Positions 7,341-11,597 of a DNA stretch of 11,773 nucleotides are shown piece by piece. The notes beneath the pieces are model-generated. The model searched no databases and had not been told where the DNA came from. It saw only the letters and a program-made list of their open reading frames with translations. Origin of the DNA: an uncultured Eubacteriales bacterium (lineage in GTDB: Bacteria; Bacillota; Clostridia; Peptostreptococcales; Anaerovoracaceae); the NCBI GenBank assembly GCA_902797195.1, contig CADBRY010000233.1, positions 1 through 11,773 on the forward strand. Direction: 5' to 3'. A program made the translations under genes and the position numbers. The first letter of the stretch is position 1; each line of letters starts with the position of its first letter.

Positions 7341-7376
7341 AAAAAATGGCTCTGACCTAAGTTGGTCAAAGCCATT
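7341..7376 (-). terminator. Intrinsic terminator overlapping the end of the 660-residue gene
   Basis: On the minus strand AATGGCTTTGACC and GGTCAGAGCCATT form a 13-bp stem with a single G-T pair around a six-base loop, followed by TTTTTT. The 5' arm contains the last codons (Trp, Leu) and the TGA stop at 7366-7368. It separates the XRE/helical-protein unit from the sigma-54 regulon. Confidence 0.9.
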
Positions 7377-9348
7377 GTGATTTGATTTGATTTTGACTTG
7401 ATTTTGATGAGGCCTGTTCAAGGTTGCTGAAGGCCTCCTCCCACTCTTCTTCCGTTCGTCCGAACCAGTCTCTTCCCCCGGGATTGCTGTAGAGATATCT
7501 TATGAAGTCGCCTCTCACAGTGGCCGGCGCCGGGCGGAAGGTGTATTTCAGGCAGTAGTCTTCTTTCGGCCGGGCTTTTTTCTCTTCCCCTGTGACGTCC
7601 TCATGGAATCTTTCCTCCATATCCTCCAGTTCAAAAGCAAATTCCTTTTGCTCCCGGCAGGTCATCTCCGTTGCAGTCATAAATCCTCCGGTAAATGACA
7701 TTTGTCTGGCTGTCCCTCCTCTGTGCCCGGGATCTTCCTGTGCTTTGGTGATCCCCACTCCCTCGGGCAGTTTTTCAAAGGCAATGTATTCAAGGAGCCT
7801 GAGCCTTTTTTCGTTTTTTGGGTCACAGGCTTCTGTTGCCTTTGCATACTCCCCATCGAAGTAGTACTCCCGGCACAGATCTGCATCCTTGGCGGTCTCT
7901 TCATCATTGTGCATACCCAGCTTCTTCAGCAGGAAAAGATATTTGTTTTTCAGCCTGTTGAGCTGGCCGAAGTCCAGCACCTCAATATCCTGTTCTGAAA
8001 ATCTTTTTTCCGTTCCCCCTATATCTTTGACAAGCTCCTCCGCCTTCTCGTCGACGCCGTCATCTTTGTACATCTTCAGCAGGGCCATCCCGTTGTGGGT
8101 CATGTAGGGCGATCCTAAAAAGTCCATCCTGATTTCAGAGGACGCCTTTGACAGAACCGCCAGCCCGTCGGTGCTGTACACGTGTTTTTCCAGCAGGCTC
8201 CTGACCTTATCCCTGTCATCGGCAGCGTCCCAGTGGGCGATGAGATTTTCGTACAGGCTGTTCATCACCAGGAGCTCCTCTCCAATAATGAAGTCCCCGC
8301 CGCAGAACTCCTCCATGTCCTCCAGCCACCTTTGCATTCGTGCGTAGTACGCCTCGGTCACTCTGCCGCCCGCTTCAAGTTCTATTATTCTCAACAGCCA
8401 GTTGTCGTGATCGTAGAGCATGTAGAACAGGAATACGATTGCCTTTCCAAGATGCTCCCGGTCAGGATTCTCCCGGGCTGTTTTTATCAATATTTGGAGA
8501 GCCGCTCCGTAGGTTTTAAAAACTTCGTCGGCTCTGGCAGCGTTCTCTTCCGTGGGATTTTCTATGAAGTTTTTATACAGCATTTCCATTGTTTGCCTCA
8601 GGTCTTGCTCACGGCAGTCATCGATTGAGTCAAATTCATCGACCAGTTTTTCTGCATATCCTGCCAGTATGCCGAACCTGTTCTTTTCCAGCTCACCCCT
8701 CAAAAGCTTTTGGATCATCTCCTCGTGACCACTCTCTCCAAAGGAGCCTTTATAGGGATTCTTCCGGGCGATCCCCCGCCTCTCCATTGCCAGAAAGTAG
8801 TTCTTCGCCTTTTCCTCATCGCACTCCCAGTGCCCGTTCCAGAGGTAGAAGTATGCCAGGCGATTGAAGGCCTCACTTTCAAAGCTGTCGCTTCTGTCCA
8901 GCATGGCTATGTACCATTTCATCAGGTTTTCAGTTGGTTCCCTTTTCGCCTCCTCTTCCAGCGCCGGGAAAAGGAACTGGTTGATTTGCCTCAGCCGGAG
9001 GCCGTCGACCGTCTCCCTCATCTCGGCGTATGTCAGGTTTCTTATGAGCATCCTGAGCCATATGATGCTGTCCCGTTTTTGGTGGATGGCCTCCTTCATT
9101 TCCCTGATCAAATCTTCCCTTTTTTTCATCCACTCCTCTATGGAGTCATACATTGCATTTCTCTCCATGTTGATCCTGGCGGCGATCATCAAATCCTCCA
9201 GATCGCATTCTCCGGCTCCCCCTTCTTTTGTCAGGCCCGCGAGGATGTGGTGGGTGCTTCTCGCTTTTTCCCGCCACCCCTTCCGGTCTTCCAAAGGCAA
9301 TGCTTTCATTTCTTCCAATACTTTATTCAGTTGTTCTTTGTATCCCAT
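7366..9348 (-). CDS. Uncharacterised 660-residue helical protein
   Basis: I do not recognise this family. The protein is hydrophilic, charged and predicted mostly helical, with no signal peptide and no membrane segment, so it is probably cytoplasmic. Segments such as AFNRLAYFYLWNGHWECDEEKAKNYFLAMERRG (about 160-192) look like Sel1/TPR-type helix pairs, and DADLCREYYFDGEYAKATEACD near 490-510 is similar, suggesting an alpha-solenoid. The last 150 residues (from about FEKLPEGVGI) look different, with Gly/Thr-rich and aromatic stretches, and may be a separate domain. I see no nuclease, kinase or protease motif. AGGAGG is eight bases before the ATG. It follows the XRE regulator by 64 bases with no good promoter between, so both are probably cotranscribed, and it ends in a strong terminator. 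A regulator plus solenoid partner is plausible, but function is unknown. Confidence 0.85.
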   Translation of the reverse strand: MGYKEQLNKVLEEMKALPLEDRKGWREKARSTHHILAGLTKEGGAGECDLEDLMIAARINMERNAMYDSIEEWMKKREDLIREMKEAIHQKRDSIIWLRMLIRNLTYAEMRETVDGLRLRQINQFLFPALEEEAKREPTENLMKWYIAMLDRSDSFESEAFNRLAYFYLWNGHWECDEEKAKNYFLAMERRGIARKNPYKGSFGESGHEEMIQKLLRGELEKNRFGILAGYAEKLVDEFDSIDDCREQDLRQTMEMLYKNFIENPTEENAARADEVFKTYGAALQILIKTARENPDREHLGKAIVFLFYMLYDHDNWLLRIIELEAGGRVTEAYYARMQRWLEDMEEFCGGDFIIGEELLVMNSLYENLIAHWDAADDRDKVRSLLEKHVYSTDGLAVLSKASSEIRMDFLGSPYMTHNGMALLKMYKDDGVDEKAEELVKDIGGTEKRFSEQDIEVLDFGQLNRLKNKYLFLLKKLGMHNDEETAKDADLCREYYFDGEYAKATEACDPKNEKRLRLLEYIAFEKLPEGVGITKAQEDPGHRGGTARQMSFTGGFMTATEMTCREQKEFAFELEDMEERFHEDVTGEEKKARPKEDYCLKYTFRPAPATVRGDFIRYLYSNPGGRDWFGRTEEEWEEAFSNLEQASSKSSQNQIKSQWL

Positions 9349-9412
9349 TTCCAGTACCTCCTATTGATTATCCGCTGTGATTTTATTCTAACCGCACGGA
9401 GGCGTCCGGTCA

Positions 9413-9730
9413 TCAAACCCACGGTTGCACCTGCAAGTTTTCTTGATACAAACGTTTCCGGTAAAAATCAAACTCCCCGTCAATGACGAGGAGCTCTATG
9501 ATTTCCATATCCAGAGCTTTGCTGAGGACTACCAGTGTGTCCGTGGAGGGAAGTGACCTTCCGTTGAACCACTTGTAGATGGCCTGGGAGCTGAACCCTG
9601 TAAGGGTCATCAGGTCTCTCACATCGTAGCCTTTTTCTCTGGTGATCAGCTTTAACTTTTCTCCGGTTTTCTCTACGTTTATGGTTATCTGCGCCAGCTT
9701 TACCGGATCTCTTCGGGAATTAACGGACAT
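9413..9730 (-). CDS. XRE/Cro-type HTH transcriptional regulator
   Basis: A 105-residue DNA-binding protein. A helix-turn-helix of the XRE family spans about 25-80: LKLITREKGYDVRDLMTLTG, then FSSQAIYKWFNGRSLPSTDTLVVLSKALD, including the typical KWxxGRSLPSxDTL pattern. A 20-residue N-terminal extension and a short C-terminal tail carry no known domain. Three in-frame starts are close together (GTG 9739, ATG 9736, ATG 9730). AAGGGAG at 9739-9745 is eight bases before ATG 9730 and overlaps or abuts the other two, so I use 9730. A consensus sigma-70 promoter and three 14-bp repeats lie upstream, which could be autoregulatory. The adjacent 660-residue gene downstream is the likely functional partner. 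Confidence 0.88.
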   Translation of the reverse strand: MSVNSRRDPVKLAQITINVEKTGEKLKLITREKGYDVRDLMTLTGFSSQAIYKWFNGRSLPSTDTLVVLSKALDMEIIELLVIDGEFDFYRKRLYQENLQVQPWV

Positions 9731-9738
9731 TCGCATCA

Positions 9739-9745
9739 CTCCCTT
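9739..9745 (-). promoter_or_regulatory. Ribosome site deciding XRE start
   Basis: AAGGGAG lies eight bases before ATG 9730. The alternative GTG at 9737-9739 overlaps it and ATG 9734-9736 is only two bases away, so neither can use it well. Confidence 0.65.
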
Positions 9746-9764
9746 CTTTTTTCAACAGTTTCAT

Positions 9765-9793
9765 ATTATACGCTCCGCGATCGGCGAAATCAA
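9765..9793 (-). promoter_or_regulatory. Sigma-70-type promoter of the XRE unit
   Basis: The minus strand carries TTGATT (9788-9793) and a perfect TATAAT (9765-9770) with a 17-base spacer. The spacer contains the palindrome CGATCG in a GC-rich context, a possible operator. The start of transcription would be near 9758, about 28 bases before the ATG. Confidence 0.8.
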
Positions 9794-9817
9794 GGTTTTC
9801 GGACGATTTTGAATGCA

Positions 9818-9859
9818 ACCGGTAGTTGGTGACCGGTGGCTTGTGACCGACGGTTGGTT
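9818..9859. repeat. Three 14-bp tandem repeats upstream of the XRE promoter
   Basis: Units start at 9818, 9832 and 9846: ACCGGTAGTTGGTG, ACCGGTGGCTTGTG and ACCGACGGTTGGTT. Units 1 and 2 agree at 11 of 14 positions, units 1 and 3 at 10 of 14. They begin 24 bp upstream of the -35 element of the XRE promoter and after the stop of the zinc-finger gene. They could be operator sites. I see no clean terminator for the zinc-finger gene in this 155-base gap. Confidence 0.6.
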
Positions 9860-9885
9860 TATGAGCTTCGTTGCCTTTCCTCATG

Positions 9886-10371
9886 TCACCTGCTCATTTC
9901 TACCGACTCTATGTTTGATTTTAATTTCAGGTACTTGATCACCGCCACCGGCGCCGCCACCAGACCCACATACAGGCTGAGCATTGCCTTTACGATCGGG
10001 TACAGCAGCCAGCCGATCAGTGGCAGTATCATGAAGGTGTTGGCCGTTATCCTGTTCAGCGCGCCCCATCCGAATGGTGCACACACCAGGATGAAGGGCA
10101 CCGATATCAGTTCCAGGATCGTCCCTATGGACATGGATGAGGATATTGGGATCCCACCCATGATGATGTTCCATACTATGAATGCTACTATCAGACCACC
10201 TCCTATCATCATGTTCCGTTTTATACGATTCTTTTCTTCCGTGACCTCGGTACTTGCGCAGTTCCCGCAAAGAGGCACATTGTACTTATCCGCACACTCG
10301 GGGCAAAGAGCCTTTCCGCATACGTTGCAAGTGGCTACAGCTTCTCGATTTTCGTGATAATAACACTTCAT
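9886..10371 (-). CDS. Membrane protein with N-terminal B-box-like zinc finger
   Basis: A 161-residue protein. The first 40 residues hold eight putative zinc ligands in B-box order: Cys3, His6, Cys15, Cys18, Cys23, Cys26, Cys35 and Cys38 (C-x2-H-x8-C-x2-C-x4-C-x2-C-x8-C-x2-C), enough for two zinc ions. A short charged linker (TEEKNRIKRN) precedes about three to four hydrophobic segments between 53 and 148. The zinc domain is probably cytoplasmic, since there is no signal peptide. Such bacterial proteins exist in many genomes without a known role; protein-protein contact is a reasonable guess. AGGAGG at 10381-10386 is nine bases before the ATG. It follows the wall-anchored protein gene by 53 bases and is probably cotranscribed with it. 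Confidence 0.82.
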   Translation of the reverse strand: MKCYYHENREAVATCNVCGKALCPECADKYNVPLCGNCASTEVTEEKNRIKRNMMIGGGLIVAFIVWNIIMGGIPISSSMSIGTILELISVPFILVCAPFGWGALNRITANTFMILPLIGWLLYPIVKAMLSLYVGLVAAPVAVIKYLKLKSNIESVEMSR

Positions 10372-10424: not shown

Positions 10425-11378
10425 CTACAGATGTTCAAATTCGTTATCCCGCTGTTTGATTATCGCGGCTGCGCTTATGAGTGATATAAAGGCAATCACT
10501 GCCGCCAGGTACAGCTTCATTGAGATGTCGTCTCCCGTCCTGGGAGTGCTGCCGTGTTCTGCTTCTGTACTGTGTACCCTGCTGTCTTCCCTGTACGATG
10601 CCTCCCTTAGATCCGACTTGAGCGGCGGCACATAGGCCTCGTCTCTGGTCCTGTTATCCACTTTTACATATGCTCTGGGGTCGCATTGTCCGTATTTGCT
10701 GCTCATGTATTTGTCGAAGTCTGTTGTGATTGGCTTTGCTGTATCCTCACTTTCTGTCTGATCCCCGGTGTCCGTCGTGCCATTGCTTACGTTTGGAGTG
10801 CCGGTGTTCTCTGATGCCCCAGTTCCCTCTGGTGTGCCATCTTCTTCCGGAGTGCCGGTGCCCGTCGCCTCATCGCTTGCCTCTATTGACTTGTTTTCTT
10901 CGACCGGTTCGGTGGAGTCCTCGGTGGGGCTTCCCTCCATAGGATCCTCGCCAGCGACCTCATCCTCGAGCGGCTCGTCTTCTATGTGCTCGTCTTCACC
11001 GAGCTCATCCTCGAGCGGTTCATCTTCTGTATATTCGTCCTCACCGAGCTCATCCTCGAGCGGTTCATCCTCTATGTACTCGTCCTCACCGAGCTCATCC
11101 TCGATGGGGTCATCTTCTATGACCATCGGCGGGTTGTCCTCGTTCCTTACGTATATCCACACGGCGTTCATTTGCTCAACCCCTTCTAACTTGCTTCTTT
11201 CTATCTCTCCGGGATAATACTCTCCGCCATACCCCTCAGGCATCCAGTAGTACAATTTACATGTAAATCCCGGTTTATCCTGTGGCGGATAGATGGCGTA
11301 GTGACCATCCGTCAGCTCGACCCTTGCCAATCCGGCTGAAAACACGATGCCGTTTATAGATATCCTGCCCTCTTCCAC
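10425..11378 (-). CDS. C-terminal part of acidic-repeat, wall-anchored surface protein (-1 frame)
   Basis: A 317-codon open frame. The first codon is GTG at 11376-11378, but it has no ribosome site, and the sequence makes best sense as a continuation of the signal-peptide ORF (11354-11584) after a -1 shift at 11378-11384, giving 386 residues. Order: an unrecognised, probably beta-rich domain (1-85, with YAIYPPQDKPG and YYWMPEGYGG); an acidic 15-residue repeat (about 92-140); a Thr/Gly/Glu-rich linker (about 145-215); a second unknown segment (220-270); and TPRTG (278-282) followed by a hydrophobic helix (287-307) and a short tail KQRDNEFEHL. This is the layout of a sortase substrate, with Thr in place of the usual Leu. 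No sortase gene is in the window. The protein would be bound to the wall; function unknown. Confidence 0.8.
   Translation of the reverse strand: MEEGRISINGIVFSAGLARVELTDGHYAIYPPQDKPGFTCKLYYWMPEGYGGEYYPGEIERSKLEGVEQMNAVWIYVRNEDNPPMVIEDDPIEDELGEDEYIEDEPLEDELGEDEYTEDEPLEDELGEDEHIEDEPLEDEVAGEDPMEGSPTEDSTEPVEENKSIEASDEATGTGTPEEDGTPEGTGASENTGTPNVSNGTTDTGDQTESEDTAKPITTDFDKYMSSKYGQCDPRAYVKVDNRTRDEAYVPPLKSDLREASYREDSRVHSTEAEHGSTPRTGDDISMKLYLAAVIAFISLISAAAIIKQRDNEFEHL
10961..11120. repeat. 45-bp tandem repeat coding for acidic 15-mers
   Basis: Three full 45-bp units start at 10961, 11006 and 11051 (each beginning CATCCTCGAG on the plus strand), and a partial fourth starts at 11096. They encode variations of EDELGEDEYIEDEPL. 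The units are nearly identical at the DNA level, including silent positions, which points to recent duplication. Copy number is likely to vary between strains. Confidence 0.9.
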
Positions 11379-11584
11379 TTTTTTATTTCGTATCGATTAC
11401 TGTCATAAAACCCTTCCTGTGCCGGTATCAGCATTGTCCCTGATTCGGAAGTCGTCTGCAGCTCATCCGCGGCGGCAACCGGTGATACCCCATAAGGAGT
11501 GGCAAACCAGGTTCCAAGTGCCATGATGGAAGCGACCATAACGGCTGCGATATTTACTTTTCTCATCTCTCTTTTCTTACTCAT
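11354..11584 (-). CDS. Signal-peptide ORF, N-terminal part of the surface protein
   Basis: A 76-codon frame starting MSKKREMRKVNIAAVMV. It has a basic n-region, a hydrophobic core (AAVMVASIMALGTWFA) and a likely cleavage site after SPVAAA near residue 38. I start at ATG 11584 because AAGGAG is seven bases upstream; the frame is open further up to 11716 but without a ribosome site. It stops at 11354, 24 bases into the next frame. Read alone, it would give a secreted peptide of about 38 residues ending KKWKRAGYL. With a -1 shift at the A_AAA_AAG heptamer its residue 69 joins directly to VEEGRISING of the downstream frame. I favour one split gene over two. Confidence 0.75.
   Translation of the reverse strand: MSKKREMRKVNIAAVMVASIMALGTWFATPYGVSPVAAADELQTTSESGTMLIPAQEGFYDSNRYEIKKWKRAGYL
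11378..11384 (-). other. A_AAA_AAG slippery heptamer at frame junction
   Basis: In the signal-peptide frame the codons are ATA AAA AAG TGG. Slipping back one base gives AAA AAA GTG GAA GAG, which is exactly the downstream frame. The permissible window is short: the -1 frame has a TAA 18 bases before the first of these AAA codons, and the zero frame stops at 11354. One more A in the run would fuse the two frames directly. Confidence 0.7.
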
Positions 11585-11591
11585 CTTTCTT

Positions 11592-11597
11592 CTCCTT
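11592..11597 (-). promoter_or_regulatory. Ribosome site deciding the surface-protein start
   Basis: AAGGAG seven bases before ATG 11584. It selects this start over an in-frame ATG 132 bases upstream, and puts the signal peptide at the true N-terminus. Confidence 0.75.

What the first reader, a model, noticed from the sequence alone, without database searches (positions are those of the whole stretch)
11354..11584. Surface protein split exactly at an A_AAA_AAG slippery heptamer
The signal peptide and the body of a wall-anchored protein lie in overlapping frames. The only short window where a switch can occur contains the classic dnaX-type -1 heptamer in the right codon phase. The downstream frame has no ribosome site at its GTG. 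Three explanations compete: programmed -1 frameshifting, which would make a 76-residue secreted peptide and a 386-residue anchored protein from one mRNA; reversible gain or loss of one A (phase variation of a surface antigen); or a plain indel or assembly error. Against programming, I see no strong hairpin right after the heptamer, and the nearest SD-like AGGAAGGG is about 26 bases upstream, further than in dnaX.
Basis: partly seen in the sequence, partly recalled or inferred. Interest (0 to 1): 0.72.

Follow-up and report, generated by a model that had tools for sequence, protein, structure and literature searches.

The report
Split surface-protein gene at A-run
A gene for a secreted surface protein in an uncultured bacterium is cut into two reading frames at a short run of A's; this looks more like an ordinary one-letter change or assembly slip than a programmed trick, though no close relatives were found to settle it.

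Summary
On the minus strand a 76-codon ORF with ribosome site and signal peptide (11584-11354) and a 317-codon body with acidic repeats and a sortase-type tail (11378-10425) lie in two frames that are both open for only 40 nt. The only slippery heptamer there is A_AAA_AAG at 11384-11378, in phase. Codon usage changes frame there, so this looks like one gene split in two.

The programmed reading is weak. No Shine-Dalgarno-like site lies at working distance, and the downstream hairpin is ordinary: 8 of 44 other in-phase A_AAA_AAG sites of this genome fold as well or better. Conservation cannot be tested: the protein search found only the pieces themselves, and genome searches found one remote domain match, in an unsplit surface protein of a congener.

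The site lies about 390 bases from a contig end in a 300-contig, 78%-complete draft. An ordinary single-base indel, in the cell or in the assembly, is most likely. Programmed frameshifting and an on/off slippage switch stay possible; the latter has a precedent with the same layout (Bifidobacterium breve pilin genes, G-tract). Interest is low.

The parts
11354..11584 (-). Upstream ORF, 76 codons: signal peptide, Ala-rich cleavage region and further residues, stop at 11356-11354
   Evidence: coding score in this frame; no protein match except itself
11592..11597 (-). AAGGAG Shine-Dalgarno-like site seven bases before the ATG at 11584
   Evidence: read
11378..11384 (-). A_AAA_AAG heptamer, in phase for the upstream frame; only XXXYYYZ site in the overlap
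11357..11396 (-). 40-nt stretch in which both frames are open
11338..11372 (-). Modest hairpin after a 5-nt spacer, -8.5 kcal/mol over 35 nt; not exceptional
10425..11378 (-). Body ORF, 317 codons from a GTG without ribosome site
11154..11366 (-). First part of the body, probably a divergent Listeria-Bacteroides (InlB-type) repeat
   Evidence: one congener match, E 2.6e-4, 30% over residues 6-75; BLASTP 26% over 73; that protein matches PF09479 below cut-off; no direct Pfam match for this piece
10955..11121 (-). 45-nt tandem repeat, 3.7 copies, acidic 15-residue units
10428..10547 (-). Sorting-signal-like tail: TPRTGD, hydrophobic stretch, weakly charged end
   Evidence: compared with genus tails; not matched by PF00746

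Best explanation
One gene for a secreted, probably sortase-anchored surface protein without known close relatives is broken by a single-base length difference at or near a run of six A's. The difference is either a recent mutation in the cell or an error of the draft assembly. As the sequence stands, translation would make a 76-residue exported peptide and little or no anchored protein. Shown: two frames, 40-nt overlap, change of frame of the coding signal, ribosome site only on the first ORF. Inferred: that the cause is an ordinary indel, and that the body is not otherwise translated.
For: The coding signal passes from one frame to the other within the overlap. The body frame has no further breaks, and in 4 of 6 comparisons between repeat copies synonymous codon differences outnumber others, one is even and one reversed, third positions changing most in all six, so the frame was coding. 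The site is a homopolymer, where indels concentrate (general knowledge). It lies about 390 bases from the contig end of a 300-contig, 78%-complete assembly. Stimulators of programmed frameshifting are missing or ordinary. The gene is an orphan. A survey of 1106 genomes expected singletons without homologues to be gene overlaps (33%) or else sequencing errors and indel mutations (67%), while naming orphan genes with recoding as possible (PMC3711429, section 'Singletons'). The one congener protein with a related domain is unsplit.
Against: The break falls on an in-phase A_AAA_AAG, which only 0.36% of coding windows of that size hold. By reading, the other long ORFs of the contig show no break, so the assembly is not generally poor. 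Six A's are short for sequencing or replication slippage (general knowledge). No read or strain data were available, so mutation and assembly error cannot be told apart.
Confidence: 0.7

Rival explanations
1. Programmed -1 ribosomal frameshifting at A_AAA_AAG: most ribosomes end after the 76-residue exported peptide, a small share shift and make a 386-residue anchored protein.
For: Right heptamer in right phase, the only one in a 40-nt overlap. A_AAA_AAG is among the most efficient motifs in E. coli when stimulated and is listed as shifting above 0.10% unaided (PMC4066793). A hairpin follows after 5 nt, within the 5-8 nt given there.
Against: No SD-like sequence in the 30 nt upstream; this is weak evidence, since only 8 of 56 non-mobile candidate clusters of that paper had a conserved one. 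Hairpin excess 0.068 kcal/mol/nt, below the lowest value, 0.09, of its IS set (my calculation follows the method roughly). 8 of 44 control sites fold as well over 56 nt, 10 of 44 by best hairpin. No homologue, so no conservation. Not dnaX and not a transposase by any family match.
Confidence: 0.14
2. Reversible replication slippage at the A-run switches the surface protein on and off between cells (phase variation); the assembly caught an off state.
For: The layout is that of split pilin genes of Bifidobacterium breve: export-signal ORF and LPXTG body without canonical ribosome site, separated by a homopolymer (PMC9187656, section read). Repetitive acidic surface-type protein.
Against: Six A's are not an outstanding tract: 3.6% of 43-nt coding windows hold a homopolymer of six or more. 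The two table lengths I saw for Bifidobacterium G-tracts were 8 and 10. No population data.
Confidence: 0.12
3. RNA polymerase slippage on the A-run gives a mixture of messages, some of them in frame.
For: A-run at the junction; poly-A sequences in transposase genes can be used this way (PMC3711429, section read).
Against: Bacterial (E. coli) RNA polymerase was found to need at least seven T and even more A (PMC6260861, abstract).
Confidence: 0.02
4. Two separate genes that overlap by chance; the body starts at its own GTG.
For: The frames overlap and a GTG is present.
Against: No ribosome site at the GTG; the body has an anchor-like tail but no export signal, the first ORF has the signal and no anchor.
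Confidence: 0.02

Closest known systems
Bifidobacterium breve UCC2003 bbr_0113a/b and bbr_1889a/b (sortase-dependent pilin genes split at a G-tract)
   Same: Short export-signal ORF, then a long sortase-type body without canonical ribosome site, frames meeting at a homopolymer (PMC9187656)
   Different: G-tract with measured length variation there; six A's and no variation data here; the sortases found here lie on other contigs
Programmed -1 frameshifting at A_AAA_AAG (dnaX, IS3-family transposases; examples recalled and in PMC4066793)
   Same: Same heptamer, same phase
   Different: No SD stimulator at working distance, ordinary hairpin, no conservation to test
Singleton frame-disrupted genes without homologues (PMC3711429)
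   Same: Orphan, frame transition at a homopolymer
   Different: That survey used complete genomes; this is a draft assembly
Surface proteins with Listeria-Bacteroides (InlB-type) repeats and a sortase tail
   Same: Probable single repeat domain, acidic linker, xPxTGD tail
   Different: Very divergent, no direct family match

Membership tests
Programmed -1 ribosomal frameshifting | X_XXY_YYZ heptamer in phase inside the overlap | tested here: met
Programmed -1 ribosomal frameshifting | SD-like stimulator 6-17 nt upstream | tested here: not met
   not universal, 8 of 56 non-mobile clusters in PMC4066793
Programmed -1 ribosomal frameshifting | Stimulatory structure 5-8 nt downstream, stronger than its surroundings | tested here: inconclusive
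   hairpin present but within the range of controls: 8 of 44 and 10 of 44 as stable; 42 of 163 sliding windows as stable; 12 to 106 of 200 shuffles as stable over five pieces
Programmed -1 ribosomal frameshifting | Heptamer and both frames conserved in homologues | tested here: inconclusive
   no homologue spanning the junction found
Programmed -1 ribosomal frameshifting | Two protein products from one message | not testable with these tools
   needs proteomics or reporters
Phase variation by slipped-strand mispairing | Unusually long repeat tract | tested here: not met
   six A's; 3.6% of coding windows hold such a run
Phase variation by slipped-strand mispairing | Tract length varies in the population | not testable with these tools
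   no reads, no second strain
Sortase-anchored surface protein | Signal peptide, xPxTG motif, hydrophobic stretch, charged tail | tested here: inconclusive
   all seen across the two ORFs, charged tail weak; PF00746 no match
Sortase-anchored surface protein | Sortase in the genome | tested here: met
   three matches over cut-off
Listeria-Bacteroides (InlB-type) repeat | Match to PF09479 or TIGR02543 | tested here: not met
   no direct match; only through one congener protein

The most novel reading that the evidence does not exclude
A bacterial surface protein whose display is set by -1 ribosomal frameshifting right after the signal-peptide region, so that one message gives mostly a secreted 76-residue peptide and a small share of anchored protein. 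I recall no such case; the listings of three paper searches (3 of 3, 10 of 21 and 12 of 15 papers shown) showed none by title and abstract start.
Probability: 0.1. Interest if true: 0.6.

Novelty: new member of a known kind. Interest (0 to 1): 0.2.

Why it matters
As an ordinary indel it matters little, beyond warning that automatic gene calling makes two proteins of one gene (the two pieces are separate database entries). If the split were kept in living populations, it would show either a slippage switch or recoding that controls surface display in an uncultured bacterium.

Tried and rejected
Homology of the body: 61 genomes, own included, plasmids by DNA, 5.8 billion proteins with the whole body and with residues 1-90, genome contigs, 393 genomes drawn from the order, own included, viral contigs: nothing but itself. 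The first 84 residues alone in 49 genus genomes, own included, matched 9 others at E up to 10, one of them below 0.001. Homology of the first ORF: in 49 genus genomes, own included, 15 weak matches in 13 others, E 0.1-0.6; those I read look unrelated, several alike only in a signal peptide (L013, L016 and L018 were not read properly). In proteins only itself; its cluster counts two member sequences on one contig, unexplained.

Synteny: the first M20 peptidase and the transporter are shared with six named records, some cut short by contig ends, and none of these stretches matches either piece. The p660 gene is shared with two congeners, the HTH gene by reading with one of them; neither congener matches the 84-residue piece.

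A scan for other frame breaks in 81 contigs was abandoned: 69 candidate pairs, 29 without an SD-bearing start, by eye mostly antisense artefacts or normal overlaps; it did not list the case in hand among those 29, so it says nothing on the error rate. One look-alike in L129 is by reading an ordinary pair of histidine-pathway-like genes with a start of its own (names recalled).

Scripts with faults: and the dnaX part read only one strand of unoriented loci; one search repeats them on the other or both strands. In one search the site itself dropped out of its table by a coordinate slip, leaving 44 controls; its value comes. Some of those 44 frames may not be genes.

dnaX: 30 of the 46 frames over cut-off were read, the window genome's own not among them.

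tRNA-Lys anticodons, which affect slippage on AAG (recalled), could not be tested: ten tRNA matches, nine over cut-off, none lysine. Rfam: none. Structure prediction never ran.

Full report
What is there. The window is contig C233 of a draft genome of 1,547,073 bases in 300 contigs, 78% complete. Six named records hold a 69-91% identical M20 peptidase; they include a roe-deer jejunum metagenome genome and Anaerovorax odorimutans. The habitat of the window's own genome is not known to me. On the minus strand, 11584-11354 is a 76-codon ORF with AAGGAG seven bases before the ATG, a signal peptide and then a stop. The next frame is open from 11396 to 10425; its first start is a GTG at 11378-11376 with no ribosome site. 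Both frames are open over 40 nt, where A_AAA_AAG at 11384-11378 is the only XXXYYYZ heptamer.

One gene in two frames. With a codon score trained on 268 long ORFs from 81 contigs, the upstream frame scores best before the junction, fading to 0.5 and 0.1 in its last two windows, and the downstream frame from about 11389; three body windows at 11299-11225 are slightly negative, though still the highest of the three frames in each. The first ORF has the export signal and no anchor, the second a TPRTGD plus hydrophobic tail and no export signal. In 20 of 30 genus loci brought in by the anchor family, a sorting-type tail was read; they fall into LPxTG/SG and xPxTGD kinds, mostly with a basic end. 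The tail here fits the second kind, but its end is weakly charged and Pfam finds no anchor. Three sortases are in the genome. The body has 3.7 copies of a 45-nt repeat. Pairs of copies differ by 2-4 synonymous and 0-4 other codons: synonymous ahead in 4 of 6 pairs, one even, one reversed; third positions change most in all six. This supports a coding past, but counts are small.

What the body is. Family and structure searches gave only chance-level matches. In 49 genus genomes the first 84 residues match one other protein at E 2.6e-4, 26% identical over 73 by BLASTP. That protein, in L189, is an unsplit 542-residue frame with a signal-peptide-like start and an xPxTG tail; PF09479 scores 18.8 bits on the matching part and 21.9 on the whole, under the cut-off of 27. 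So a divergent InlB-type repeat is probable, not shown. The split lies a few residues before that domain.

Is the heptamer special? AAAAAAG occurs 703 times in the genome, against 761 for the pattern read backwards. In phase it occurs 36 times in 105,633 codons; 0.36% of 43-nt windows hold it. A chance meeting with a random break is thus unlikely, but indels are drawn to homopolymers, and 3.6% of windows hold a run of six or more. In 7 of 30 dnaX frames of congeners the heptamer is present in phase as well.

Programming. AGGAAGGG ends 26 nt upstream; none of five SD-like patterns lies in the 30 nt before the heptamer. A hairpin follows after 5 nt: -8.5 kcal/mol over 35 nt, 0.243 kcal/mol/nt, excess 0.068 over the sliding mean, with 42 of 163 sliding windows as stable. 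PMC4066793 gives 0.452 for 271 IS3-family hairpins, 0.317 for its own 53 clusters, and a lowest excess of 0.09 in 20 IS elements (sections read). It also shows that lack of a conserved SD is usual in non-mobile candidates (8 of 56 had one), so that absence counts little. Of 44 other in-phase sites in frames of at least 200 codons, 8 fold to -14.0 or better over 56 nt, and 10 have as good a hairpin. Over five pieces around the site 12, 40, 45, 48 and 106 of 200 shuffles fold as well; the 12 is for a 56-nt piece right after the heptamer and is the best case for a structure. Conservation could not be tested.

Phase variation. The layout is that of split pilin genes of Bifidobacterium breve, where a G-tract varies in length in the population (PMC9187656; abstract, one section and passages seen). 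Here the tract is six A's and no population data exist. E. coli RNA polymerase slippage needs longer runs (PMC6260861, abstract).

Verdict. An ordinary single-base indel, in the cell or in the assembly, is most likely (0.7). I cannot divide the two: the site is about 390 bases from the contig end, yet by reading the other long ORFs of the contig are unbroken. PMC3711429 expected two thirds of singletons without homologues to be sequencing errors or indels (section read).

Noticed in passing
window 7366-10371: The p660 and small HTH genes are adjacent here and, by reading, in G071 contig C9. p660 matches 2 of 48 other genus genomes; the zinc-finger-like gene at 9886-10371 matches 1 of 48, weakly. 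The stretch from about 7100 to the contig end looks lineage-specific.
   Followed up: partly
G000:C300:2158-6141: Two sortase-type tails and two sortase matches lie together, a probable sortase-dependent surface cluster.
   Followed up: no
window 11357-11584: The 76-residue protein's database cluster counts two member sequences on one contig, against one for the body.
   Followed up: no
window 10768-11217 (+): A 149-codon serine-rich frame lies opposite the acidic repeats; probably a mirror of the repeat codons.
   Followed up: no
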